This document shows positions 36,977 to 55,146 of a stretch of DNA of 64,000 nucleotides, in pieces; the first letter of the stretch is position 1; each line of letters begins with the position of its first letter. A program made the translations under genes and the position numbers. The notes beneath the pieces were generated by a model that saw nothing but the letters and a program-made list of their open reading frames with translations, did no database searches and had not been told where the DNA came from. Origin of the DNA: Letharia columbiana (lineage: Eukaryota > Ascomycota > Lecanoromycetes > Lecanorales > Parmeliaceae); NCBI RefSeq assembly GCF_014066305.1, contig NW_023501069.1, positions 62,001 to 126,000 of the forward strand, written 5' to 3'.

Positions 36977-37203
36977 ATTCTCAGGGAGATCCCCTAAAAC
37001 CCCTCGGACCCTTCGGGGGCTCTTTAAGGGCTCTCCGAGAGCTTCTGTCGAGGGGCTGTCAAAGCAAGCTCGAAATTTGATTATTTTAGTGATATTTGAT
37101 TGATTTCAAGCTTGCTTTGACAGCCCCTCGACAGAAGCTCTCGGAGAGCGCTTAAAGAGCTCCGAAGGGTTTAAGGGATTTTAAGGGATCTAACCCTGAG
37201 AAT
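36977..37203. mobile_element. Foldback element with about 100-bp inverted arms
   Basis: Nearly the whole 227 bp is an inverted repeat. The left arm starts ATTCTCAGGG and the right arm ends CCCTGAGAAT. Both contain CTCTCCGAGAGCTTCTGTCG and AGGGGCTGTCAAAGCAAGCT, with an AT-rich loop of about 25-30 nt. The arms are GC-rich and have few mismatches, unlike the RIP-decayed repeats nearby, so this copy is probably young. Transcripts would fold into a long hairpin. Confidence 0.85.
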
Positions 37204-37733: not shown

Positions 37734-38913
37734 TCAACAGCACTTTCCTTTCCTGTTTATGGCAAGACTTTGAGCGCCGTCATTTGCCTCTTCGCCAGTT
37801 GCGATGCCCAGCCAACTTTGGCGCTTGTTGCTCAGTTTGAAGCTACCTTGGACATCCGAAAGGCCTTCAAAATAGCCACCTTGACCCCTTTTCTGACCCG
37901 GCGTGTTGTTGCGTTCGTCTCGCAACTGTTCCTGCTCCTTCTTGTTCTTCTGTTCCACAAGCTTTCTCGTGATAACACGGAACACCTCTTCAATACCTTC
38001 ACCATTTGATGCACTGATCTCATGGCAACAGTCCCAGCCTTTCACGTTGTCGGAGTCAGTATTTCTTCTTTGAGATGGAGAGGGAGTCACAAGACAGGGT
38101 CGTGAGTACTCTCGGAGCATGTCCCGGAAATCAAACCGGGGTACGAATTAGAGGGATGTTGCTCCGAAGTGACGTACCAATTTCTTGGCCCCAGAAACCG
38201 CTGCTGCGAGCGCTTCCAGGGAAGGTAGGGGTTGAGACCTTTTGCGGATAGAGGTTCTCTGCAACATATGCTATACATCTTTCGAATGGAATCTGTCTTA
38301 GACTGGGCTCTTGCGCGACCACATCGCTTTTCGTTCCTACGACGTGTATGACGATATCATTCCCAAGATTCTCCCTCATCTCCGTCAACCAGCGTCCCAT
38401 CTCTTCGAAGCTGCTTTCATCTATGATACTGTAGACAAGGAGTACTGCACTTGCTCCTCTGTAGTACAGTTTTGTGATGGATCTGAATCTCTCTTGACCT
38501 GCTGTGTCCCATAGCTCTACGCAGATTCAGGAGTCAGCATTGTTTATTCGAGATCGGAAATGGAGTTGCAAGACAGGTCCCGGGAGTAGAAAGGCCTTCT
38601 TGCTCCCGAAACATGTCCTGCGACTCAACTTCAATACCAAATAGGAAGGATCAGCTCCGAAATGTACGTACGGAGGCGTACCGTAGTTCCGGTGTCAACA
38701 TCAACCACCCTCTTAGTGAGGAAAGACGCCCCGATAGTTGATGTGACGCTGGATGGGCTAAAGGATCCTTTGATATATCGGTCTAATAAGCTTGACTTAC
38801 CGACACCTACGCGCGATCAGCTAGCTACCTGAGCAGAAAATGCCATGTTTGTTGTGTGGTAACGAACCTTGCGCACCTAGGACGCAAATTTTAGCCTCGA
38901 GGCTATTGGACAT
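37734..38913 (-). CDS. Rab-family small GTPase with an extended C-terminal region
   Basis: Exons 38913-38868, 38806-38672, 38516-38178 and 38038-37734 encode 274 aa. G1 is GAQGVGKSS (residues 13-21). The switch I region carries SVTSTIGASF; G3 is WDTAGQERF (about 62-70). G4 is GTKSD in place of the usual GNKxD, and G5 is EISASNG. The protein ends KGKCC, a double-Cys geranylgeranylation site typical of Rabs. Two additions make it longer than a normal Rab (about 200 aa): a Ser/Pro-rich stretch before G5 and a charged tail (KLVEQKNKKEQEQ onward) of about 75 residues. Membrane traffic regulation is inferred; the Rab subclass (Rab5/21-like?) is uncertain. Introns 2 (155 nt) and 3 (139 nt) belong to the introner-like family; intron 1 is a normal 61-nt intron. 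Confidence 0.88.
38039..38177 (-). mobile_element. Introner-like intron, Rab gene intron 3
   Basis: 139-nt intron starting GTACGTCACTTCGGAGC. It contains TTCCGGGACATG, then CCTGTCTTGTGACTCC, and the branch region ACTGACTCCG before AAAG. These blocks align in order with intron 2 of the same gene and with introns of unrelated genes near 41 and 47.9 kb. Confidence 0.8.
38517..38671 (-). mobile_element. Introner-like intron, Rab gene intron 2
   Basis: 155-nt intron starting GTACGTACATTTCGGAGC and ending CTGCGTAG, with branch region TGCTGACTCCTGAA. The centre folds back on itself: GAGTCGCAGGACA plus CGGGAG pair with CTCCCG plus TGTCTTGCAACTC, a stem of roughly 24 bp around a 16-nt loop. This is the clearest hairpin of the family in this window. 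Confidence 0.85.
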
Positions 38914-39100
38914 TATTTATCATCCATGATGAATTTTGCGTTGGCTCTATGGCTGTTTTAGTCGACAAAAGAATCTATCTTGTCGACGTCTTCTGATGGC
39001 GGTGATTGGAAACTCGCGCCCACTCCTTCCGGATTTAACGATCTCCCGTCAGCCCTAGCCGCAATTCTCATCTGGCAGACTGGCACCAGGGGCACGCGGG

Positions 39101-39313
39101 GTCAAAAAAGCCTGCACACGCCAAGAAATCCCCTTATTTTACTCTTTGAAATAATTCTATTTATATTGTCTTTACAAAATATGTTTTGCGGCGAGACTTA
39201 TTATTTCTGATGTGATCTTTAACATATGAAGCGGAAGCCTTTTGTTATGACCACTCGTTGACAAGTTGTGGTAGATTTGCAGATTTTGGGGTGTGCAGGC
39301 TTTATTGGTGACT
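39101..39313. mobile_element. Small MITE-like inverted-repeat element
   Basis: The left end (about 39105-39130, AAAGCCTGCACACGCCAAGA) and right end (about 39282-39307, inverse of AAAGCCTGCACACCCCAAAA) form imperfect terminal inverted repeats around a 150-bp AT-rich interior. No ORF. The right end shares the 15-mer GCACACCCCAAAATC (inverted) with the left arm of the 22.8 kb MITE. Confidence 0.65.
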
Positions 39314-39801
39314 GGCTGCCTTTTCCCCTGCCCATCTTCTCCAAGCGAACATGATTCAGCTTTGTGAGAATTCAAAGGAGTATCTAATCACGCAACGAAA
39401 GTCTGACTTGTTCGCATCCACTATTGCAAGAGGTCAGATAGAGTAAGATTAGAGTCTCTCAATCCAATCCCTCACTTCCTTCACCAACCCCACCTTGTTT
39501 ATCTCCGGCGCTTAGTCCCCGCAAAACGATCGACAATGCTCTACCCCAGGCCTGCTCAGCGCCGCCCATTGCCCGAAGCTTCATCGCCCATCCGGCAAAT
39601 AATTGGCAATGTTCGTTTCGGAGTTGCAAGCATCCCAGCAAGCGCTGCATCATTGTTAACTACTGTTCTCCCCCTTTCGTTTCTCAAAAGCGGTCTACCG
39701 CCAGGGTTTTACTTTACAAGCTCTTTTTGCCATCATTGTTTCTGTCTCTTGGTTTGTCTCTCTAGCATTAAGCATCTCTCGAAATCAAGACCTCGCTCAA
39801 T
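39314..39801. promoter_or_regulatory. Upstream region of the b2-type dehydrogenase
   Basis: About 490 bp. It has pyrimidine-rich stretches (39.72-39.77 kb) just before the start codon, consistent with a promoter and leader. No specific site assigned. Confidence 0.4.
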
Positions 39802-42030
39802 ATGAACCACGAGTCGAATGATCAGCAGCCAAAGGAGCAAAAGCTGCGTGGCGAAGAAGTGGCCAAACATAATAATGACAAAGACTGCTGGTTGGTTTCC
39901 CCCAACCTCCCCGCTGCCGTTATTCTGTTCCACTGAACCATCGATTCGGCAGGGTCATTATCCACGGTAGAGTCTACGATGTCACCGAGTTCAAAGAAGA
40001 GCACCCAGGAGGTAAATCCAGTGAGTCCACTACGCCAAGGAGAAACAGACTCGTACACTGAAGCATTGGATACAGTCATTCTTAAGTGGGCTGGCAAAGA
40101 TGCCACCGAGACGTACAATCCTATACACCCCCCGGACACCCTTGATAAGTTAGAAACCATTTCAGACTTCTAGGACTGAAGGTGAGTAAAGAGCTGAAAA
40201 CGACCAGGTTTCTTGATAAATCGAAGCACTTGGGAGAAGTGAACATGGATACAGTGGAACAAGAAAAAGAATTCGACCCCGATGAAGAAGAACGGCAAGA
40301 GAGAATCAAACGCATGCCGATTTTGGAACAATGCTACAACCTAATGGACTTTGAGGCTGTGGCGCGACGGGTAATGAAGAAGACCGCATGGGCTTACTAC
40401 TCCAGCGGATCAGATGATGAGATTGTGAGCCAATGATGTACCATTCTTGCAAAATACTGACAGTGTACGAGACGATGCGAGAAAACCATTCAGCCTTCCA
40501 TAAGATATGGTTTCGACCAAGAATCCTTCACGATGTTGAAAATATAGATCTCTCCACCCAAATGCTTGGAACTAAAGTAGACATTCCATTCTATGTCACT
40601 GCGACAGCACTGGGTCAGTAGCGCTATCCTGGCACTTCCATCGGAGAACCTGCATTTCTAATGTGATTGTAGGTAAACTTGGCAATTCCGAAGGCGAAGT
40701 AATACTCACACGTGGTGCGAAGAAACATAATGTCATCCAGATGATTCCCACACTCGCTAGCTGTTCTTTTGACGAGATTGTCGATGCCAGGCAGGGTGAC
40801 CAGGCACAATGGCTCCAGCTCTACGTAAACAAAGACCGCGCAATTACGGAACGTATAATCAAACATGCCGAGAATCGTGGGTGTAGAGGTCTCTTCATTA
40901 CTGTCGATGCACCTCAGGTTCGTACGTTTCGGAGTAATCACTTCCTTCTTTATGCCGAATTCTGGGTTGCAAGACATAGTTCTGGGGCAGAAGACTCTTT
41001 CTACAACGCTGACTCCGAAATGTGCGTAGCTCGGCCGCCGGGAGAAGGATATGCGCAGCAAATTTTCTGATGTGGGATCGAATGTGCAAAACACCGGCGG
41101 CGACAACGTGGATAGATCCCAAGGCGCTGCACGTGCTATCTCTTCCTTCATCGACCCATCACTTAGCTGGAAAGATATTCCCTGGTTCCTCGGCGTGACG
41201 AGTATGCCAATCCTTCTTAAGGGTGTACAAAGGGTTGAAGATGTCATCCGAGCTATCGAGGTTGGCGTCCAAGGTGTTGTACTTTCCAACCATGGTGGCC
41301 GCCAGCTCGACTTTGCAAGGTCAGGAATCGAAGTTCTTGCTGAAGTTATGCCCGTCTTGCGTGAACGTAATTGGCAGGATAGGATCGAGATATATATTGA
41401 TGGCGGTATTCGACGTTCTACTGACATAATCAAGGCGTTGTGCTTGGGCGCAAGAGGGGTGGGCATTGGCAGACCGTTTCTATATGCTATGAGTGCTTAC
41501 GGACTGCCTGGCGTGGACCGAGCCATGTATGTACATTTCGGAGCCTATTCTTCCTGTTCAGTACCACATTCCGAGTCACAAGACATGTTTCGCGAAGAAA
41601 GGGTCTTTTACTCCCCTGAAGCTGTCTGATTGGAGACTTGCCTCGAAGAAGAGATGCTGACCCCGAAACCTCTATAGGCAATTGCTGAAAGATGAAATGG
41701 AGATGAACATGAGACTCAGTAAGGCACTTTTCGGAGTTGTCTCTTCCTGTTCGAGATTGCTTTTTGAGTCCTGAGACATGCTGGAGGAACAAGTTACCCA
41801 ATCCACCCTTTCTATTCCTCAACGATATCCTGTTTCTCAAATCTTCATCAACGAATGAGAGTGCTGATTCAGGAATTGTGCTAGTTGGCTGCTCCAAGGT
41901 TGATCAACTCAACCCCACGCTCCTGGACACTAGAGGCCTGAGCATGCATTCGACTTCAGTGCCAGCAGATACCTTGGGTATGACCATCTATGATCCGCTC
42001 GTAAACCCACAGGAGAAGGCGAAGCTATGA
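39802..42030 (+). CDS. Flavocytochrome b2-type L-2-hydroxyacid (lactate) dehydrogenase
   Basis: Nine exons: 39802-39890, 39953-40020, 40076-40148, 40208-40424, 40472-40613, 40673-40917, 41030-41526, 41678-41718, 41885-42030; 505 aa. The cytochrome b5 domain (about residues 14-85) has both haem ligands: EEHPGG and PIHPPDTL. The FMN domain follows with YYSSGSDD (substrate Tyr), QLYVNKD, ILLKGV (active-site Lys), LSNHGGRQLD (catalytic His) and DGGIRRSTDIIKALCLGARG (FMN phosphate). Family members oxidise L-lactate or similar 2-hydroxy acids and pass electrons to cytochrome c. Yeast Cyb2 has a long mitochondrial presequence; here the protein starts MNHESNDQQPKEQ directly before the b5 domain, so an intermembrane-space location is doubtful. 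Substrate is not certain. Introns 6, 7 and 8 are introner-like; exon 8 is only 41 nt between two of them. Confidence 0.9.
40918..41029 (+). mobile_element. Introner-like intron, dehydrogenase intron 6
   Basis: 112-nt intron: GTTCGTACGTTTCGGAG start, GGGTTGCAAGACATA centre, CGCTGACTCCGAA branch region, TGTGCGTAG end. It splits the codons for VDAPQ and LGRRE of the FMN domain in phase 0. It is very similar to the introner-like intron at 47.8 kb in an unrelated gene. Confidence 0.88.
41527..41677 (+). mobile_element. Introner-like intron, dehydrogenase intron 7
   Basis: 151-nt intron: GTATGTACATTTCGGAGCC start, CCGAGTCACAAGACATG centre, GATGCTGACCCCGAA branch region, CTATAG end. Phase 2, interrupting the Met of VDRAM. 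Aligned in order with the other family members. Confidence 0.86.
41719..41884 (+). mobile_element. Introner-like intron, dehydrogenase intron 8
   Basis: 166-nt intron: GTAAGGCACTTTTCGGAG start, CTTCCTGTTCGAGATT, then GAGTCCTGAGACATGC centre, GTGCTGATTCAGGAA branch region, GTGCTAG end. More diverged than its neighbours, suggesting an older copy. Phase 1 before IGCSKVDQL. Confidence 0.75.
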
Positions 42031-42154
42031 GCATGTCAGTCTCTAATATCTTGCGGTGTTTTGCAGTGAAACTTCTTTTACGCATGCCCATATATATGCT
42101 TATGTAAATAGAATACGAAAGAAGTCGCGAAAAATACTTAGGCTTACACTGTTC

Positions 42155-43123
42155 TTATATATTTACAGTCTGCGCAGGATTCCCAAGTCGTCCTGTACTT
42201 CTATACATCAATGCCGCGTTAATCATTACCGTCCCCCTTCCATCTCCACCCCAGACTCTATACCATAGTATACTCAGAATGCCGTACATTGCCAACTTCA
42301 TCATATCCAGCCAGGCTAGGATGGCCACCATATCCCTAACCACGCCCTTGACTTCCCTCGAACACAACTTTTCATACAGTATCTGTGTATCATCCCAGAA
42401 CACCTGTACACGACCGTGGCTTGCGTGTATATGCCCAAAGATGTGTACCTTGGGTCTCACTCTCCAGACCTCCTTTGACAAGTAATCGCATCCTAATCCG
42501 GCAGGCAGATCCAGATGATGCCTTGGTGGCGTATGGGTGATTAAGACATCGACATCTGGTGGAATGGTGTACGACCACGCATCGTCGCTTCGATGATACT
42601 GGAAGGCAAAATCCTCCCCACCGCATTGGGGGACTTGTGGTGCGCCATAAAAGCGCAACTGGCGGTGCGCTTGACTGGGAAAGGTGAGCTGAACGCTGGA
42701 GTGCTGGAGATAGTGCACATCACCCCACCGTGGCGCTTTGCCAGCATCGGTTTTCCGCCTTGCTCGTGGATCAAACCAACTGTCGTGATTACCAGCAATG
42801 ACGACCTTGTGCTCATAAGGTAGAGAAGATATCCAATCAATCTGATCTTGAATCTCGGCAACTGTGCCGTCACTGGTAAGGTCACCCGCATGCACTAGGA
42901 CGTCTCCCTGAGGTAGGAAAGTAGGTTTGTGTGTATGGGTGTCGGAAATGCAGACAATACGGATTTGACTTGAAGATGGAGGCTTGGAGGTAGACGGGCC
43001 CCGCAGAAATAGAATAAGGTTGTAGAGCGTCTGAGTCAAGAATCTCAGCGGTGAGCTAAGCAGGCGATATGGGATAGAAGGCGGCTCGAAGGGGGAGGGT
43101 GGAGGTATGAGTAGAGAGGCCAT
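42155..43123 (-). CDS. Calcineurin-like metallophosphoesterase (MPPED/239AB type)
   Basis: Single-exon gene, 322 aa. Metal-binding motifs appear in family order: CISDTHTH (residues near 59), HAGDLTSDG, AGNHDSWFD, LITHTPPRHHLD and FGHIHASHGRV. This set matches the MPPED1/MPPED2-like (UPF0046) branch of binuclear metallophosphoesterases common in fungi. The N-terminus (PPSIPYRLLSSPLRFLTQTLYNLILFLRG) contains a hydrophobic stretch that could be a membrane anchor. The C-terminus has a second hydrophobic stretch (DMVAILAWLDMMKLAMYGIL). The physiological substrate is unknown. It is divergent from the anoctamin gene. Confidence 0.88.
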   Translation of the reverse strand: MASLLIPPPSPFEPPSIPYRLLSSPLRFLTQTLYNLILFLRGPSTSKPPSSSQIRIVCISDTHTHKPTFLPQGDVLVHAGDLTSDGTVAEIQDQIDWISSLPYEHKVVIAGNHDSWFDPRARRKTDAGKAPRWGDVHYLQHSSVQLTFPSQAHRQLRFYGAPQVPQCGGEDFAFQYHRSDDAWSYTIPPDVDVLITHTPPRHHLDLPAGLGCDYLSKEVWRVRPKVHIFGHIHASHGRVQVFWDDTQILYEKLCSREVKGVVRDMVAILAWLDMMKLAMYGILSILWYRVWGGDGRGTVMINAALMYRSTGRLGNPAQTVNI

Positions 43124-43490
43124 GGGAAAGAGGCTGTAGGATCGATCGACTGTAGCCTCTTGTGGAAAATGAACCGCAGTCCTAACAGAAAATCATTCCT
43201 CGAACTTCGGGGAACAATGACTAATAATACCCAGACGCAGTGGTTCTGCAGGAGGAATTTCGGCCCGGAGAAAAGGGTTTTCCGATCACGACCAAGAAGG
43301 TACCAACGTGCCAACCCCTTCCGAGTAGACTACTTTACCCTTGTTTGTCGCGAAGCGCGATGACGTCTAGCCTCCTCCAACTTTCCAAGCTCCGCTGTCT
43401 GAGTCTCCAAGTTTGGAGGAAGTCAAGTCAGAGGAAGTCAAGTCAGACCTCGAGACTTTTGAATCTAGAAGACTGACTCTGAGCGCAAAC
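43124..43490. promoter_or_regulatory. Divergent promoter region, phosphoesterase/anoctamin
   Basis: 367 bp between two start codons. It contains a 15-bp unit repeated in tandem (GGAAGTCAAGTCAGA at 43418-43432 and 43433-43447) about 45 bp before the anoctamin start, and TTTCCAAGC / CCAAGTTTGG sequences. A duplicated site may be regulatory, but this is conjecture. Confidence 0.4.
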
Positions 43491-45829
43491 ATGCCTCCAC
43501 ACCATAATATACCGCATGACAACTTGAAAGTTGACTATGTCATTATTTACAGATTCGCGGATTCCAGTAAGTCGCGTAATCCCTCCCGTGGAAAGCATCT
43601 GTCTGACAAGACCAACTCTTACAGCTAAGACGGAGGCTTCAAGAAGCTTTCAGGACCTTGTGCAGGCACTGGCTAGGGTAGGCCTCGCGATTGAGGTTCG
43701 GAACGGAGGGAATTGCTCCCTTCTGATCTTCGTCAAAGTGGCTTCCGATGAGCGTCTCAACAACGCCATCTATCGCTCCAGGTGCGCACCAAAATCATAA
43801 ATGTTATAAGTCATCTAACAGAAGCTGTAGAGTAAAGGACTGGCTTTACGGCATAAGGCCCGCCCAGCCGGATCGGGAAACGCAGAACTCGTTGACAAGC
43901 CAGCCGCTGACAGAAGCTGAACGGTATCGTATAGTCCACCAGCTGATCACAGGTCCAAAGGAAGAAGGAAATGCTGGGATCGTTCCCACTCATGGTCAAT
44001 GGAAGAACGTAGAGTCTATCTTCCCACTCCACGATCATACCTTCAACAAGGAATGGATCAAGAAATGGGCGACCGTGACGTTTCTCAAAGTGGAGGACTT
44101 GGACGAGATCAGAAATCGATTCGGCGAGAAAGTCGCATACTACTTCGCCTTCACACAATCCTACTTTGCCTTTTTAATTTTCCCTGCGGCCTTCGGTTTC
44201 TCGTCGTGGGTCTTGTTAGGCCATTTCTCGTCCATCTACGCAGTTGTCAACTGTCTGTGGAGCGTGGTTTTTATCGAATACTGGAAACGGCAAGAGGTAG
44301 ATCTCGGTATCCGCTGGGGCGTGAAAGGTGTTTCAGCCATTCAGGAGAAGCGAAGAGAGTTTCAGCACGAAAAGGAAATCCAAGATCCGATCACTGGTGA
44401 GGCTGTACAGGTCTTCCCAGCAACGAAGAGGTTGTATAGACAGCTTCTCCAGCTACCGTTTGCTGTCCTGGCATCTTTGGCACTTGGACTAATTATAGCC
44501 ACCTGTTTTGGCATTGAGATCTTCCTATCCGAGGTCTACAATGGACCATTCAAGAGTATTCTGGTAAAGCCAGTGGTCCTCAGCGATGTTTTCAAGACAC
44601 TGATTCCCATGTAGGTATTCCTCCCTACGCTACTTCTCACAGCTTTGGTCCCTACAATCACAACGATACTGACCGAGATTGCGACGCGACTTAACAACTA
44701 CGAAAACTGGGAAACCACCGACGCTTATGATTCTGCCATGACCCAGAAAATCTTCATTCTCAACTTCATCACTTCATACCTTCCAGTCTTCCTAACAGCG
44801 TTCGTCTACGTGCCGTTTGGCAGCTTAATCGTGCCTTATCTGGATATCTTCCAGCTGACTGCGCGTCCCTTTGCGGAAAATGAGAAGCAGCTTGCGACTC
44901 CAAAAGCGGGGTTTGCCATCAATCCAGCAAGGCTCCGGAAGCAGGTTATCTACTTCGCTGTCACAGCGCAAATAGTCAACTTCGCGATGGAGACCATCGT
45001 CCCTTACGTCAAGCGCAGAGGTTTTCACAAGTATCAAGAGCTTAAGACCGAGAGAGCCGCCAGGAAGGGAGGTGCTGCTCCAAACGCAGCTGCGAACGAT
45101 CTGCCTGAAGAAGCCGAGTTTCTTGCAAGAGTCCGCGGCGAGGCCGAGCTCGATGTCTACGATGTGTCTACGGATCTGAGAGAGATGGTTGTCCAATTTG
45201 GCTATCTGACCCTTTTTTCGGTGGTATGGCCGGTGACGGCTGTGTCATTCCTCATCAACAACTGGGTGGAACTTCGCTCGGACGCTGTCAAGATCTGCGT
45301 TGAGATGCAACGCCCAACTCCGCACCGAGTCGACAGCATTGGACCATGGCTGGATAGCTTGGGATTTCTTACATGGTTAGGCAGCATTTCTACTGCCGCC
45401 CTCGTATATCTCTTCAGCAATGATGGCTTAGGCCCAGACGGCACGCCAGCAGACATCAAAGGATGGGCTTTTCTCCTGACCGTCTTCTTCTCCGAGCATA
45501 TATATCTCTTGGTTCGCCTTGCAGTACGTTTAGCGATCTCCAAAATGGACTCGCCAGGAATGCAAAAGGAGCATGCAGAACGGTTCATGGTTCGTAAACG
45601 CTATTTCGAAGAATCCTTCGGGGAAGATGCAATGGAGCTGCCGCCACCAATGGACAGAGAAAAGATCACGCGGTCATCGCTGGAGGAAGAAGCTCGACAA
45701 GGCAGTATGAGGAGCTCTACTCCCCAGGATCAGTTCTGGTTGAGGCAGCGAAGCTGGGAAGAATCATCTTCGATCGGCATGGGTCTCATTGAGAAGATGG
45801 CACCAGCAGAGAGTAGGAAGCAACAATGA
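43491..45829 (+). CDS. Anoctamin/TMEM16 family membrane protein (Ist2-like)
   Basis: Exons 43491-43566, 43625-43781, 43831-44563 and 44615-45829 encode 726 aa. After a cytosolic N-terminal domain (VDYVIIYRFADSTKTEASRS) come about nine to ten hydrophobic segments. Examples are YFAFLIFPAAFGFSSWVLLG, AVVNCLWSVVFIEYW, LASLALGLIIATCFGIEIFL, FITSYLPVFLTAFVYVPFGS, FGYLTLFSVVWPVTAVSFLI and LLTVFFSEHIYLLVRLAVRL. The FIEYWKR and RFGEKVAYYFAF segments are typical of anoctamins. Fungal members are lipid scramblases (Aspergillus afTMEM16) or ER-plasma membrane tethers (yeast Ist2). The tail is short, without Ist2's long linker, so a scramblase role is as likely as tethering. Introns 1-3 are short and canonical; intron 3 (donor GTAAAG) is needed because the frame otherwise stops. 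Confidence 0.9.
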
Positions 45830-46138
45830 AAGCAACGGGTTTTCATGGATGCCTGAAGCGTTGACTAGCGTTCATAATGCCGTCCTGCCTTATCATTTGT
45901 ATTCATAATCGTTCCTTGGGCATTTCTTGCATACGCCCATACTCACCCTGAGGCGTCCTGCCCAAATCGCATATTTCATAATGCCACTGTAGTTCCTATA
46001 TTGAGCTACGATTTGGGTCGTGTGCATGCATTTGACCAACAGCCTTGGCAGCGAAACCCATATGATGTTCCCCCACTCACGCCTCGCCACTATGCATATT
46101 GTCCATATGCAAGCAAGCCCATTGCGAAACCAGCATTC
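45830..46138. other. Convergent 3' intergenic region
   Basis: About 300 bp between converging stops of the anoctamin and bud13 genes; nothing specific seen. Confidence 0.4.
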
Positions 46139-47164
46139 TCATTCATCCATTTGCCAAGCGTAATCAAGATTCTTCAAATTTGCCGTGCGATTCCTAGCGG
46201 CAAAATACTCTTTTTCAAATCCTGTTCCTCTATCAACCCCGTCCCATCTGTGACCCGGCCTAATCCCATATCGATTCGGCGTTGCAGGTCCCTTGTACAA
46301 CGGTTTCCCGCTGACACTTTTGCCCTCCTTTTTCCTCTCAAGGAACCCGGCTGCTGGATCGTTCCATCTTTCCCTCTCCATCAAATCCTCGTTCAGCTCC
46401 ACATCATCCGCGTACCTCGCTACAGGCATAAACTTCGCCTCACTCAGCTGCTCTCTGCGCTTCTCCTTCTCGGCTCGCTGGAAGTCTCCCTTTTGACCTT
46501 CGAGTTCCGCCGCTGCTTTGGCCGCTTCTTCTTCGGCTTTTTTACGGGCTTCCGCCCGCTTCATCTGCACATTGATGATGCGGCCACTGGCATCTCTATA
46601 TATGGTTTCCTTCCCTTTGCCGCTATGGTCGTCTCCGTCTTCCAGGAACCTTCGCCGTTCTTCGGCTTCCTTACGCTTCAGCTGTGCAGTGACTTGATCC
46701 GCCGTCTGTAGCCCCGCATGGGCGCCCGATTCCATTTTCATGGCCGAATCTTCCATAGTAGGGGCATCATCATCCGCGAGAGCACGAGCCCGAGATTCAG
46801 CAGCTGAAAATGTAAGAATAGCGTCGGCTGCGGCTTGTTCATTGGAGGAAGGTGTTGGAGTGCCGATGGTCTGCCATGTTGTTTTTTTTGCTTTGCGAAA
46901 TTCGGCGCTGTTTGCGTTCACTGATAACTTAGGGTCAAAGAGTGGGACAATCGGTTGAAGGCAGGAGGACAAATATTTCTCACCTTCCAGCGGTGCATCG
47001 TCGTCAGCGTTGCCCGTGCTGTCACGGTCCCAGCCTAAGGCATCATCGTCTGCTATTATGAGACCCGAGGCTGCACCGTCCTTCCGCTTGCGCTTCTTTG
47101 ACTTTTTCTGCTGCTTCGAGTCCGCTGTCAGGTAGTTTTTCGCAAGGTAGTCCGCGAGGGACAT
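46139..47164 (-). CDS. bud13: Pre-mRNA-splicing factor Bud13/Cwc26 (RES complex)
   Basis: The frame 47164-46139 is open throughout (341 aa). The start MSLADYLAKNYL is the conserved Bud13 N-terminus; an upstream ATG at 47200 is less likely. The C-terminal Bud13 domain is clear: NPAAGFLERK, GIRPGHRWDGVDRGTGFEKE and LKNLDYAWQMDE. A Lys/Arg/Glu-rich coiled coil lies in the middle. Bud13 with Snu17 and Pml1 forms the RES complex that helps the spliceosome's first step and pre-mRNA retention. A 63-nt segment (46983-46921) has a perfect donor GTGAGA, a CCTAAG branch-like site and a TTATCAG acceptor. Removing it keeps the frame and joins DDAPLE to VNANSAEFRKAKK, which looks more family-like (320 aa). 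Confidence 0.92.
   Translation of the reverse strand: MSLADYLAKNYLTADSKQQKKSKKRKRKDGAASGLIIADDDALGWDRDSTGNADDDAPLEGEKYLSSCLQPIVPLFDPKLSVNANSAEFRKAKKTTWQTIGTPTPSSNEQAAADAILTFSAAESRARALADDDAPTMEDSAMKMESGAHAGLQTADQVTAQLKRKEAEERRRFLEDGDDHSGKGKETIYRDASGRIINVQMKRAEARKKAEEEAAKAAAELEGQKGDFQRAEKEKRREQLSEAKFMPVARYADDVELNEDLMERERWNDPAAGFLERKKEGKSVSGKPLYKGPATPNRYGIRPGHRWDGVDRGTGFEKEYFAARNRTANLKNLDYAWQMDE
46921..46983 (-). other. Probable in-frame 63-nt intron in bud13
   Basis: GTGAGA donor and TATCAG acceptor enclose exactly 21 codons without a stop. Either it is spliced out or retained; both give an open frame. The encoded segment (GEKYLSSCLQPIVPLFD...) has no counterpart that I know in Bud13 proteins, so splicing is preferred. 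Confidence 0.65.
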
Positions 47165-47349
47165 ACTTGATAATCTGGAGCTTGATTGAATTTTGAGCAA
47201 GATCTCGAATTCTGGGGAAAAGCTTGGCAGCCGCGGCTATCTTTTATTTTATTATAATTTAGGCAAACGCGAAGCGCGTTTCAGTATCAATCAAGACTTG
47301 CTCCTCTACCACCTTTATACATCAAATCAAACTTAGCTGGGCAAAGAAA
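47165..47349. promoter_or_regulatory. Divergent promoter bud13/atl1 with an ACGCG palindrome
   Basis: 185 bp between start codons. It contains AAACGCG-AAG-CGCGTTT (47265-47281), a perfect 7-bp inverted repeat whose arms include the MluI-box core ACGCG bound by MBF-type cell-cycle regulators. A TTTTATTTTATTATAA stretch precedes it. Confidence 0.45.
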
Positions 47350-48107
47350 ATGGCCCGTAGTGATGAAGCGGAGTGGTGGTTCAATGCCGTTTACGCAGCA
47401 GTCCAGCAAGTCCCTAGGGGACGTGTTACAAGCTACGGTCATATTGCTCGTTTGCTAGGAAGGTGTAAGTAAGATTCCGTTCCGGCCACTACTTTATTCA
47501 TCTGCTGTGAAACACGCCTGATGTGCCATTTTGATTTAGCCGAACGTCCTCGGTCAGCAGTCTCCGGAAAGCACGTCGACGGATTGAGAGCTTATCGAAC
47601 TGTAGACAGGTCGGCGTCTGTCTAAAGCATCTACCGTCTTCCTCAGCAAACACAAATCATCATTTCCACGATGCTAACGTTCCATGGCAACGAGTCATCA
47701 ACGCCAAAGGTATCATATCACCAAGGTCGGCAGTCAGAACTCAATGGAGCTAAATTGTCAATTTTGATAAGAGTCACAGAGGTCCAGGCGGTGCTACGAG
47801 ACAAGCGGCGTTCCTAGGGCGAGGTTCGTACATTTCGGAGTACCTAATTCCCTCCTTTTCGGTGCCGAGTGCTGAGTTGCAAGACATATTTCCGGAGCAG
47901 AAGACCCTTTCCAATCCCAAGACATGTCTTGTGAGGCCTTTGAAAAGCAACGCTGACTCTGAAGTGTGCGCAGAAGGAGTCACTGTTGGAACTGGCGATC
48001 TAGGAGAACTAACGGTAGATCTGAGCGCATATGGGTGGTTTCCTCAGTTCCTAACGAGCGACGGGGCTGAGGCTAGTGAGTCAGAAGAAGAAGAGGGCAG
48101 TGGCTGA
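47350..48107 (+). CDS. atl1: Alkyltransferase-like protein (ATL, MGMT-fold, no acceptor Cys)
   Basis: Exons 47350-47464, 47540-47552, 47606-47725, 47780-47823 and 47974-48107 encode 141 aa. The protein has the MGMT C-terminal DNA-binding fold only: WWFNAVYAAVQQVPRGRVTS, YGHIARLLG, a short ERPRQVGVCLKHLP exon join, NVPWQRVINAKGIISPR, and EGVTVG. At the position of the alkyl-acceptor Cys (PCHRV in MGMT) there is Trp70 (PWQRV), the hallmark of ATL proteins. S. pombe Atl1 binds O6-alkylguanine and channels it to nucleotide excision repair. The acidic tail (EASESEEEEGSG) is extra. Exon 2 is only 13 nt. Exon 3 uses the acceptor CTGTAG rather than GACAG 4 nt later, because only the former keeps frame. 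Intron 4 (150 nt) is introner-like. Confidence 0.93.
47824..47973 (+). mobile_element. Introner-like intron, atl1 intron 4
   Basis: 150-nt intron: GTTCGTACATTTCGGAG start, GCTGAGTTGCAAGACATA centre, an opposing ATGTCTTGTGAG arm able to pair with it, CGCTGACTCTGAA branch region and TGTGCGCAG end. Phase 1. Closest in this window to dehydrogenase intron 6. Confidence 0.88.
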
Positions 48108-53608: not shown

Positions 53609-55146
53609 TGCTGTGGTAGTATGGAAAGGGGGAATTGTGGTAGATTGAGTGTTTGAAGATGTTGTAGATGTCAGAAAGATTTATAAAAGTTCGCGTATCC
53701 CTGCAAGCGGCGGCTTCATGCACTAGACGGTGGAGATTCTGAGGCAGCATCCCTGCAAATTCCGAGAATTCAAGTAGGGTAGACTCGGTCATTCAGGCGT
53801 ACAGAGGTGAGAGGCTGGGCAAGCTGCCAGATAGAATGTTAATCTGAGACGCGGAAAGCTTCCTTTCCTCATTTCACCTCAACTTGGGCATCGACCTGGA
53901 AGATAATATGTTTCTGAAACAGCACACTCTTTGGAGGAGTTCTGGTCGATATTTAAGGAATCTGCACCGCTTCGACTGTCACCTCGTCCTAGCACCGTGC
54001 TCAAGGCCGTTGCTAAAGCCTAAAGGACAGAGCTCAAGTTTGGAGACATCCTGCTGCTTCGGACTGCATTCATCGCCGCTTTCAACAAGATATCAAAAGA
54101 ACAAGCACGAATTTACGTGTGCTCCCAACCCTATCAGGTGTGGACCAGAGCGAGGGAGTGCTGGAGCAAGTTTGCATTTTGGTACCAATCTTACTCAAAG
54201 ATTACTACTGGTGAATCAAGAGATGTCTCGCGAGCAAAAGGCTCGGTCTGCCCCACGAAGTTTCCCATACTTATGTATTAAAGAAGTTAGGCTATGTTAC
54301 TCCGCTGTAGGTTTTTACTCGTGTAATTTCGAGCCAGGTTGAGTTGCAAGACCTACTCAGACTTGTCTTGAGATTGAAACGATGTTCGTGCCCTAATATT
54401 AATACTAATTTCGAACCTTGTTTGGCTGGAAATCAGCAGACGCAGTGACCCAAAGAGAGTAGCACCTCCATAAGTTTCTATTTTCTGGCTGGAGATTTCA
54501 ATAGTAGATCTCTTCGATCTTGAGACACCTTCCGAGCACTGCAAATGGCCAAAACGATCGTCGTGCTTCGTGTCAAACGAAGTCTGCAATGTGCCTAGTT
54601 GAGTTGCAAGGCAGACATCTTTTAGCCGTTTTTCCAGACGTCGCTGATGGAGTAGTCGACCGAAGATACCGGCTATTATTTGAGAGTGTATGAGCGCGGT
54701 GTCTTCGGGCCGCAAGAAGTCAGCCGAACACTAATACCATTGTTTGGACATTTGTGGTATACTGCCATTCGGTTTGTGATTCGAAGTGCTTCTCACACAA
54801 TCACTCTTGAACCTCTGATCTCGAAACTGTTTGCGGTCTCAGAGAGCCGATCGCGACAACTGCGCGTTTCGTGTAGAATAGATCCATCACTTCAATACCC
54901 AAAATAACTCATCTTTTGGGCTCGATGTCAATATTCGAAACCCATTCAATATTCATGTGCCCTTGGCATTTGGCATTTCCCCTTCTATGAGCATTTCGGA
55001 TTCATTTGTCGAGCTTGATGTGCCCCCAGTCGTGTTGCGCTAGATGCTTGCGTCCTCAAAACTTCCCGGCTAATAAATCTCAGGGCGATCGACGTGCCAA
55101 AGTGTAACATTGGGTATCTGAATGCACTGTCGCTACGTGTGATATG
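53609..55146. other. Long intergenic region between RCC1 and arl1
   Basis: About 1.5 kb holding the RCC1 promoter and the arl1 3' end. Two ORFs of 120-152 codons show no family features and are probably chance. GTTGAGTTGCAAG, the core of the introner-like introns, occurs at 54338 and again at 54598. The first has a TAATTTCGAGCC sequence before it and an opposing CTTGTCTTGAGATT after it. This may be a degenerate introner-like copy outside any gene that I can model. Confidence 0.5.

What the first reader, a model, noticed from the sequence alone, without database searches (positions are those of the whole stretch)
38039..47973. Six related long introns in three unrelated genes: an introner-like element family caught spreading
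Rab introns 2 and 3, dehydrogenase introns 6, 7 and 8 and atl1 intron 4 (112-166 nt) share ordered blocks. These are a GTNCGTACATTTCGGAG-like 5' end, a GAGTTGCAAGACATG-like centre, an opposing TGTCTTGTGACTC-like arm and a CGCTGACTCYGAA branch region. Their host genes share no ancestry, and other introns in the window (about 45-65 nt) lack these blocks. Seen directly: the shared blocks and exact GT-AG borders. Known: introner-like elements multiply as new spliceosomal introns in several Dothideomycetes. Inferred: these six are copies of one such family. The mechanism of spread is still open, so a dense set is valuable.
Basis: partly seen in the sequence, partly recalled or inferred. Interest (0 to 1): 0.88.

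Follow-up and report, generated by a model that had tools for sequence, protein, structure and literature searches.

The report
Hairpin-shaped mobile introns in lichen fungus
Six long introns in three unrelated genes of a lichen-forming fungus are copies of a hairpin-shaped mobile intron found in hundreds of copies in its genome and missing at the same places in some relatives, which makes this fungus a good place to study how new introns are born.

Summary
The six introns (112-166 nt) lie where stated, restore conserved proteins when removed, and carry a 3' block found 331 times in the 52.2-Mb genome against 8 for the reversed control. Protein matches place the fungus in Lecanoromycetes, near Parmeliaceae. 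The introns fall into several subfamilies; four subfamily consensus sequences each fold nearly end to end into a hairpin joining the splice sites (-50 to -71 kcal/mol). No target-site duplication was found. Copies sit mostly in sense orientation in coding context. Genomic ORFs of some relatives run unbroken over five of the six sites; the sixth was not tested. Pairing is not protected after insertion, so the hairpin looks needed for moving rather than splicing. These are introner-like elements, in a fungal class for which my searches listed no report. Unusual: flanking bases are subfamily-specific and, in class A, coupled to the copy's own 3' end (C|A in 17 of 27 TAG-ending copies, 0 of 16 others; 4 of 7 fresh TAG copies). 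The route of movement is open; I favour an RNA intermediate.

The parts
38039..38177 (-). Rab intron 3 (RAB3), 139 nt, phase 1, divergent introner copy
   Evidence: found by subfamily C profile E=4e-16
38517..38671 (-). Rab intron 2 (RAB2), 155 nt, phase 1, subfamily A; also scores 64 bits on its own opposite strand (internal symmetry)
38655..38671 (-). 5' terminal inverted-repeat arm of RAB2 including the donor
   Evidence: sequence; consensus fold
38517..38536 (-). 3' terminal inverted-repeat arm of RAB2 with putative branch region and acceptor
   Evidence: sequence; consensus fold
40918..41029 (+). Dehydrogenase intron 6 (DH6), 112 nt, phase 0, subfamily B, most of the inner 3' arm missing
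41527..41677 (+). Dehydrogenase intron 7 (DH7), 151 nt, phase 2, subfamily C
41719..41884 (+). Dehydrogenase intron 8 (DH8), 166 nt, phase 1, subfamily D; 17 matches genome-wide including itself
47824..47973 (+). atl1 intron 4 (ATL4), 150 nt, phase 1, subfamily B
47824..47840 (+). 5' terminal inverted-repeat arm of ATL4
   Evidence: sequence; consensus fold
47957..47973 (+). 3' terminal inverted-repeat arm of ATL4
   Evidence: sequence; consensus fold
37734..38913 (-). Rab-type small GTPase gene, 3 introns (1 ordinary of 61 nt, 2 introners)
   Evidence: relatives
39802..42030 (+). Flavocytochrome b2-type dehydrogenase gene, 505 aa, 8 introns (5 ordinary of 47-62 nt, 3 introners)
   Evidence: end points counted
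54170..54310 (+). Candidate decayed copy (26 bits, E=7e-5); no gene model made

Best explanation
These are introner-like elements: spliceosomal introns that copy themselves into new places. SHOWN from sequence: hundreds of copies of the end block; similarity that mostly runs from GT to AG; four subfamily consensus sequences that fold into one hairpin pairing the two intron ends; mostly sense orientation in coding context; seamless reading frames; no target-site duplication found; unbroken ORFs at five of six sites in some relatives; no protection of the pairing after insertion. INFERRED: splicing itself; that source copies need the hairpin to move; that the unit of movement is the exact intron; and the route, most likely an RNA intermediate (the excised intron, held as a hairpin with its ends together, is reverse-spliced into a transcript or into single-stranded DNA of a transcribed gene and copied into DNA). 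Once inserted the copy is removed by the spliceosome, the gene survives, and the copy drifts towards an ordinary intron. I put membership in introner-like elements at about 0.93 and the RNA route at about 0.55.
For: Copies: 3' block 331 vs 8, D 5' block 23 vs 1; DNA searches with six introns gave 42, 26, 13, 17, 6 and 40 matches, overlapping between queries and with a few opposite-strand matches of symmetrical copies. 126 non-redundant copies in 70 loci plus the window, 103 reaching within 12 positions of both model ends. Hairpin: z below -2 in A 31/40, B 11/14, D 10/15, E 3/6, C 2/10, unclassed 3/5; better-preserved copies fold better (A: rho -0.52, p 6e-4). No TSD in 90 copies: best z 3.97 among 435 offset/length combinations. 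Context: at least 60 nt open on both sides after splicing in 81/90 sense, 54/90 antisense, 1281/2000 random positions; longer open frame on the sense side in 71, antisense in 18, tie 1. Of 20 spliced peptides drawn from 67 loci, 9 have a Pfam match (one, GCD14, below Pfam's own cut-off) and in 8 of these it spans the junction. Relatives: 8 of 8 aligned dehydrogenase ORFs (93-95% identity) have no gap or insert at the three sites, and 5 of them enter through what reads as the tail of intron 5; 6 of 6 aligned Rab ORFs on contigs have none at the two Rab sites. Paralogous stretches in the same genome run over all three dehydrogenase sites at C22 (one stop inside) and C11. Mismatch rate 0.137 at paired and 0.141 at unpaired positions in class A.
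Against: No RNA data. Reverse splicing by one spliceosome predicts one flank preference for all introns; here flanks differ by subfamily (p 3.6e-9 at -1, 2.6e-9 at +1, small counts), and in class A the C|A flank goes with the 3' TAG end (17/27 vs 0/16, found post hoc; 4 of 7 fresh TAG copies). Inverted repeats at the ends are not required by that model. Nine of 90 copies lack an open sense frame of 60 nt on both sides; at least one (DH8) only because its neighbouring exon is short, and intergenic copies are not excluded. The relatives were recognised through long ORFs, so relatives that carry the introns would be missed. Subfamily C hardly shows the fold in single copies.
Confidence: 0.85

Rival explanations
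1. DNA transposition: the elements are short non-autonomous DNA transposons with terminal inverted repeats that insert without target-site duplication at element-specific dinucleotides, moved by an unseen transposase; sense orientation and coding position reflect selection.
For: Terminal inverted repeats in the consensus sequences; flanking dinucleotide specific to subfamily and, in class A, to the element's own 3' end; cut-and-paste transposons without TSD and with a target motif exist (Spy, AAATTT; passages of PMC4482050); most introner families elsewhere show at least one DNA-transposon sign (section 8 of PMC9860276).
Against: 81 of 90 copies have open sense context; selection can remove antisense copies from genes but does not by itself explain few intergenic ones. 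No autonomous partner was seen, though none was searched for directly.
Confidence: 0.28
2. Ancient introns kept similar by a shared RNA function or structure, not mobile.
For: Common blocks and stable fold.
Against: Unbroken ORFs at five of six sites in relatives; no Rfam family at gathering threshold in the window; no extra conservation of paired positions and no significant excess of compensatory changes (25 vs 19.2 +- 4.0; 20 of 200 permutations reach it).
Confidence: 0.02
3. Spread by segmental duplication or gene conversion together with flanking DNA.
For: One duplicated segment found, L017/L018, 98.9% identical over its main piece.
Against: Among 74 loci compared all against all, the only other match between different places longer than 185 bp is L027/L085 (69%, 287 bp, lying within their tandem copies); the closest pair, L024/L030, matches only over the intron plus about 3 nt.
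Confidence: 0.02
4. Chance similarity of splice signals, or an assembly artefact.
For: RAB3 and DH8 fail some pairwise shuffles.
Against: 331 vs 8 control; matches over the whole intron on many contigs.
Confidence: 0.01

Closest known systems
Introner-like elements (ILEs) of Dothideomycetes (Fulvia, Dothistroma, Zymoseptoria): van der Burgt 2012 known only through citing papers; Collemare 2015 PMC4457414, parts 1-3 of 4 read
   Same: Hundreds of similar introns in unrelated genes, longer than ordinary introns, several families per genome, recent gains, decay towards ordinary introns; stable fold (reported second-hand in PMC8469720).
   Different: Class Lecanoromycetes; flank bases specific to subfamily and, in class A, to the 3' end, where an AG/GY preference is reported for ILEs (second-hand, PMC8469720). 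No sequence comparison with published ILEs was made.
Symmetrical sister stwintrons and derived introns of Hypoxylaceae/Xylariaceae (PMC8469720: passages and part 1 of 2 of the discussion; PMC12403724: passages)
   Same: Terminal or near-terminal inverted repeats bringing the intron ends together, seamless insertion, no TSD, symmetry fading in more divergent copies.
   Different: Those are mainly nested [D1,2] introns at seemingly random sites without exon-side base bias; here single introns with exon-side bias.
Introners as DNA transposons (PMC9860276: sections 8 and 9 and passages)
   Same: Inverted repeats at the ends, many copies, gene bias.
   Different: No TSD found. [quoted passage not shown] these have TIR-like ends.
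Spy DNA transposons (passages of PMC4482050)
   Same: Insertion without TSD and a target preference.
   Different: Cut-and-paste transposons related to PIF/Harbinger, inserting within AAATTT; not introns.

Membership tests
Introner-like elements | Similar introns in many unrelated genes | tested here: met
Introner-like elements | Element ends coincide with GT and AG | tested here: met
   matches over the whole intron; GT exactly at the model start in 78 copies and AG exactly at the model end in 67, counted among copies whose match reaches within 12 positions of that end (denominators not printed; 103 of 126 reach both ends)
Introner-like elements | Spliced as introns in RNA | not testable with these tools
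   no RNA-seq; inferred from frames and protein conservation
Introner-like elements | Recent gain: absent at orthologous sites of relatives | tested here: met
   five of six sites, in some relatives; atl1 site not tested; loss in relatives not formally excluded
Introner-like elements | Stable hairpin fading with divergence | tested here: met
   weak in subfamily C (2/10)
Introner-like elements | No target-site duplication | tested here: met
Introner-like elements | Sequence homology to published ILE families | not tested
   published ILE sequences not at hand
DNA-transposon introners / MITEs | Terminal inverted repeats | tested here: met
   consensus folds of A-D
DNA-transposon introners / MITEs | Target-site duplication | tested here: not met
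DNA-transposon introners / MITEs | Autonomous partner with transposase | not tested
   genome not available as a file
[D1,2] stwintrons | Internal intron splitting the donor of an external intron | not tested
   no systematic search; the zero-exon tandems in L027 and L051 are side by side, not nested

The most novel reading that the evidence does not exclude
The element's own ends, not the spliceosome alone, choose the target: lineages that differ in their 3' end insert at different dinucleotides (C|A for many TAG-ending A copies, G|G for B). These would be hairpin or TIR elements with their own insertion specificity whose ends have become exact splice sites, a form between a TSD-less transposon and a reverse-spliced intron, not described in what I read of the papers cited here.
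Probability: 0.25. Interest if true: 0.88.

Novelty: new member of a known kind. Interest (0 to 1): 0.68.

Why it matters
How introns spread is an open question. Here is a lichen fungus with several hairpin introner subfamilies of differing divergence, and relatives lacking the copies that could be tested, so that source structure, target choice and decay can be read off one genome. The coupling between the intron's 3' end and the flanking bases is a concrete, testable clue that bears on the two main models.

Tried and rejected
RNAalifold on the first mixed alignment of 14 introns gave only 3 pairs; on the subfamily alignments it also gave little (A 0.0, B -5.4, C -1.6, D -5.0 kcal/mol). The hairpins quoted are folds of majority consensus sequences and of single copies. 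Covariation as proof of a selected RNA structure: not supported. TSD of 2-8 nt at offsets within several bases of the borders: not found. Viral contigs: 0 exact matches to the 17-nt 5' block. The total copy number was not measured beyond the motif counts. The idea that G before the element simply compensates a weak donor fits B (G in 14/14) and D (strong donor, G in 3 of 17) but not A1, which has the same donor as A2 yet often C before it.
Full report
WHERE. The window is G000:C34:62001-126000 of a 52.2-Mb genome in 161 contigs. The dehydrogenase protein is 93% identical to that of Imshaugia aleurites, 91% to Usnea florida and 90% to Stereocaulon virgatum; the best hit (94%) is unnamed. Imshaugia is Lecanoromycetes, Parmeliaceae. 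I take the organism to be a lichen-forming lecanoromycete near Parmeliaceae; the species is not known to me.

THE SIX INTRONS. All six exist at the stated places. Phases are 0, 2, 1 (dehydrogenase), 1, 1 (Rab) and 1 (atl1). The nine other introns of these genes are 47-75 nt and give no profile hit. Ten of 15 pairwise comparisons beat all 300 shuffles; RAB3 with four partners, and DH8 with ATL4, do not. RAB3 and DH8 are recovered by a subfamily C profile that contains neither.

GENOME-WIDE FAMILY. The 3' block occurs 331 times within 3 mismatches against 8 for the reversed control; the subfamily D 5' block 23 against 1; the common 5' block 512 against 313, of which 42 exact. DNA searches with RAB2, ATL4, DH7, DH8, RAB3 and L008 gave 42, 26, 13, 17, 6 and 40 matches; RAB2 and L008 scored only 40 of 101 and of 71 candidates, the lists overlap, and a few rows are opposite-strand matches of symmetrical copies. 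Of 95 loci then held I dropped 25 that repeated a place, overlapped the window, were the near-identical duplicate L018, or (L095) were fetched as a trial; 70 loci (219,736 bases) plus the window were searched with a profile. This gave 126 non-redundant copies, 103 reaching within 12 positions of both model ends. Of these, 105 with both borders found, 100-230 nt and at least 30 bits were classed by their first bases; 90 with at least 40 bits and near-complete model coverage were used for TSD, context and fold tests. Borders were set to the nearest GT and AG, so a few acceptors may be off. Class A is defined by a GTACGT or GTACCT start and holds some very divergent copies, RAB3 among them. L001-L008 were found through an exact 5' block, which inflates 5' conservation. 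Of 70 loci 23 hold more than one copy; copies on both strands occur in two places, one of which is the window itself.

STRUCTURE. Four majority consensus sequences (A-D) each fold into one long hairpin whose base pairs the donor region with the acceptor region: A -65.1, B -70.9, C -50.5, D -60.1 kcal/mol; E was not folded as a consensus. Single copies: z below -2 (40 shuffles each) in A 31/40, B 11/14, D 10/15, E 3/6, C 2/10, unclassed 3/5. Better-preserved copies fold better (A: rho -0.52, p 6e-4; all: rho -0.46, p 5e-6). RAB2 matches the model on its own opposite strand with 64 bits. After insertion the pairing is not protected: in class A, mismatch rate 0.137 at paired and 0.141 at unpaired positions, double compensations 25 vs 19.2 +- 4.0, while intact pairs exceed every one of 200 permutations (1616 vs 1592), as relatedness of copies would also give. 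Hence the inference that the hairpin belongs to the source copies. Divergence from consensus: A 4-44% (median 12%), B 7-30% (11%), C 12-41% (19%), D 10-31% (14%). The closest pair in unrelated flanks, L024/L030, is 96.8% identical.

INSERTION. Permutation within subfamilies found no TSD; at the borders themselves 5 vs 4.8 expected for 2 nt and 1 vs 1.3 for 3 nt. After splicing, 81/90 copies have at least 60 nt open on both sides in sense, 54/90 in antisense, 1281/2000 at random positions of the same loci. The sense frame is longer in 71, the antisense in 18, tie 1. Of 20 spliced peptides drawn at random from 67 loci, 9 had a Pfam match at E<=0.001 (GCD14 below its curated cut-off); in 8 it spans the junction, in the ninth (malic enzyme) it begins there; 11 had none. 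Nine of 90 copies fail the 60-nt criterion; one is DH8, next to a 41-nt exon.

FLANKS. The exon bases next to the element depend on the subfamily (chi-square p 3.6e-9 at -1, 2.6e-9 at +1; small counts). B: G before in 14/14, G after in 11/14. A1: A after in 20/25, C before in 14/25. In class A as a whole the pair C|A occurs in 17 of 27 copies ending in TAG and 0 of 16 ending otherwise (noticed after the fact, Fisher p 2e-5). Of seven ending in TAG four are C|A, two A|T and one G|C; the one ending in CAG is G|C (ends read by me from the printout, L099 from its reverse strand). This supports the coupling, less strongly than the first set.

PRESENCE AND ABSENCE. A query limited to the last 271 residues of the dehydrogenase returned 7581 proteins, best 120 listed, all covering at least 99% of the query. 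Eight of the 120 were aligned: none has a gap or insert at the three sites; five begin in residues that read as the translated tail of intron 5, so they come from unspliced DNA that keeps intron 5 and lacks introns 6-8. For Rab, six of the 120 listed ORFs were aligned (70-72% identity, 65-68%): no gap or insert at either site, starting at or after the place of intron 1; they carry a 12-14-residue insert about a dozen residues before the RAB3 site, absent also from the Alectoria and Usnea proteins. These are more distant relatives. The ranking favours unbroken ORFs, so absence is shown in some relatives, not in all, and loss in the relatives is formally possible; three sites in one gene plus the copy number argue for gain. 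In the same genome, paralogous stretches run over all three dehydrogenase sites at C22 (one stop inside) and C11. The atl1 site was not tested.

TANDEMS. L027 and L051 each hold two copies back to back with no exon between; L085 has one base between. The end of one copy may serve as a target for the next.

COMPARISON AND NOVELTY. Searches for introner with lichen (2 papers), spliceosomal intron with lichen and intron gain (8), introner with fung since 2016 (28) and Lecanoromycetes with introner-like elements (0) listed no report of introners in lichen fungi (listings only). The main text of PMC9860276 has no occurrence of lichen or Lecanor; its supplements were not read, and the library lacks most subscription papers. 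PMC9860276 states that ascomycete introner families show no TIRs or TSDs; the elements here have TIR-like ends and no TSD, like the symmetrical stwintrons. I file them as introner-like elements, a new member in a fungal class new for them as far as I could see, with flank specificity as the unusual feature.

Noticed in passing
L017 about 334-628 against L018: Two near-identical segments (contigs C109 and C77, 98.9% over the main piece) differ by a roughly 290-bp MITE-like insert with inverted-repeat ends, present in one and absent in the other: a paralogous empty site, perhaps a second haplotype.
   Followed up: partly
L027 1278-1654, L051 1501-1800, L085 1493-1878: Introner copies back to back with no exon, or one base, between them.
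   Followed up: partly
window 54170-54310 and just downstream to about 54400: Decayed introner-like copy, and by eye a second degenerate piece after it.
   Followed up: no
window about 37045-37160: By eye, a long inverted repeat around a short AT-rich centre in repeat-rich DNA.
   Followed up: no
P0242 (Alectoria sarmentosa Rab protein): The annotated protein has an 18-residue insert exactly at the position of Rab intron 1, probably a translated intron.
   Followed up: no
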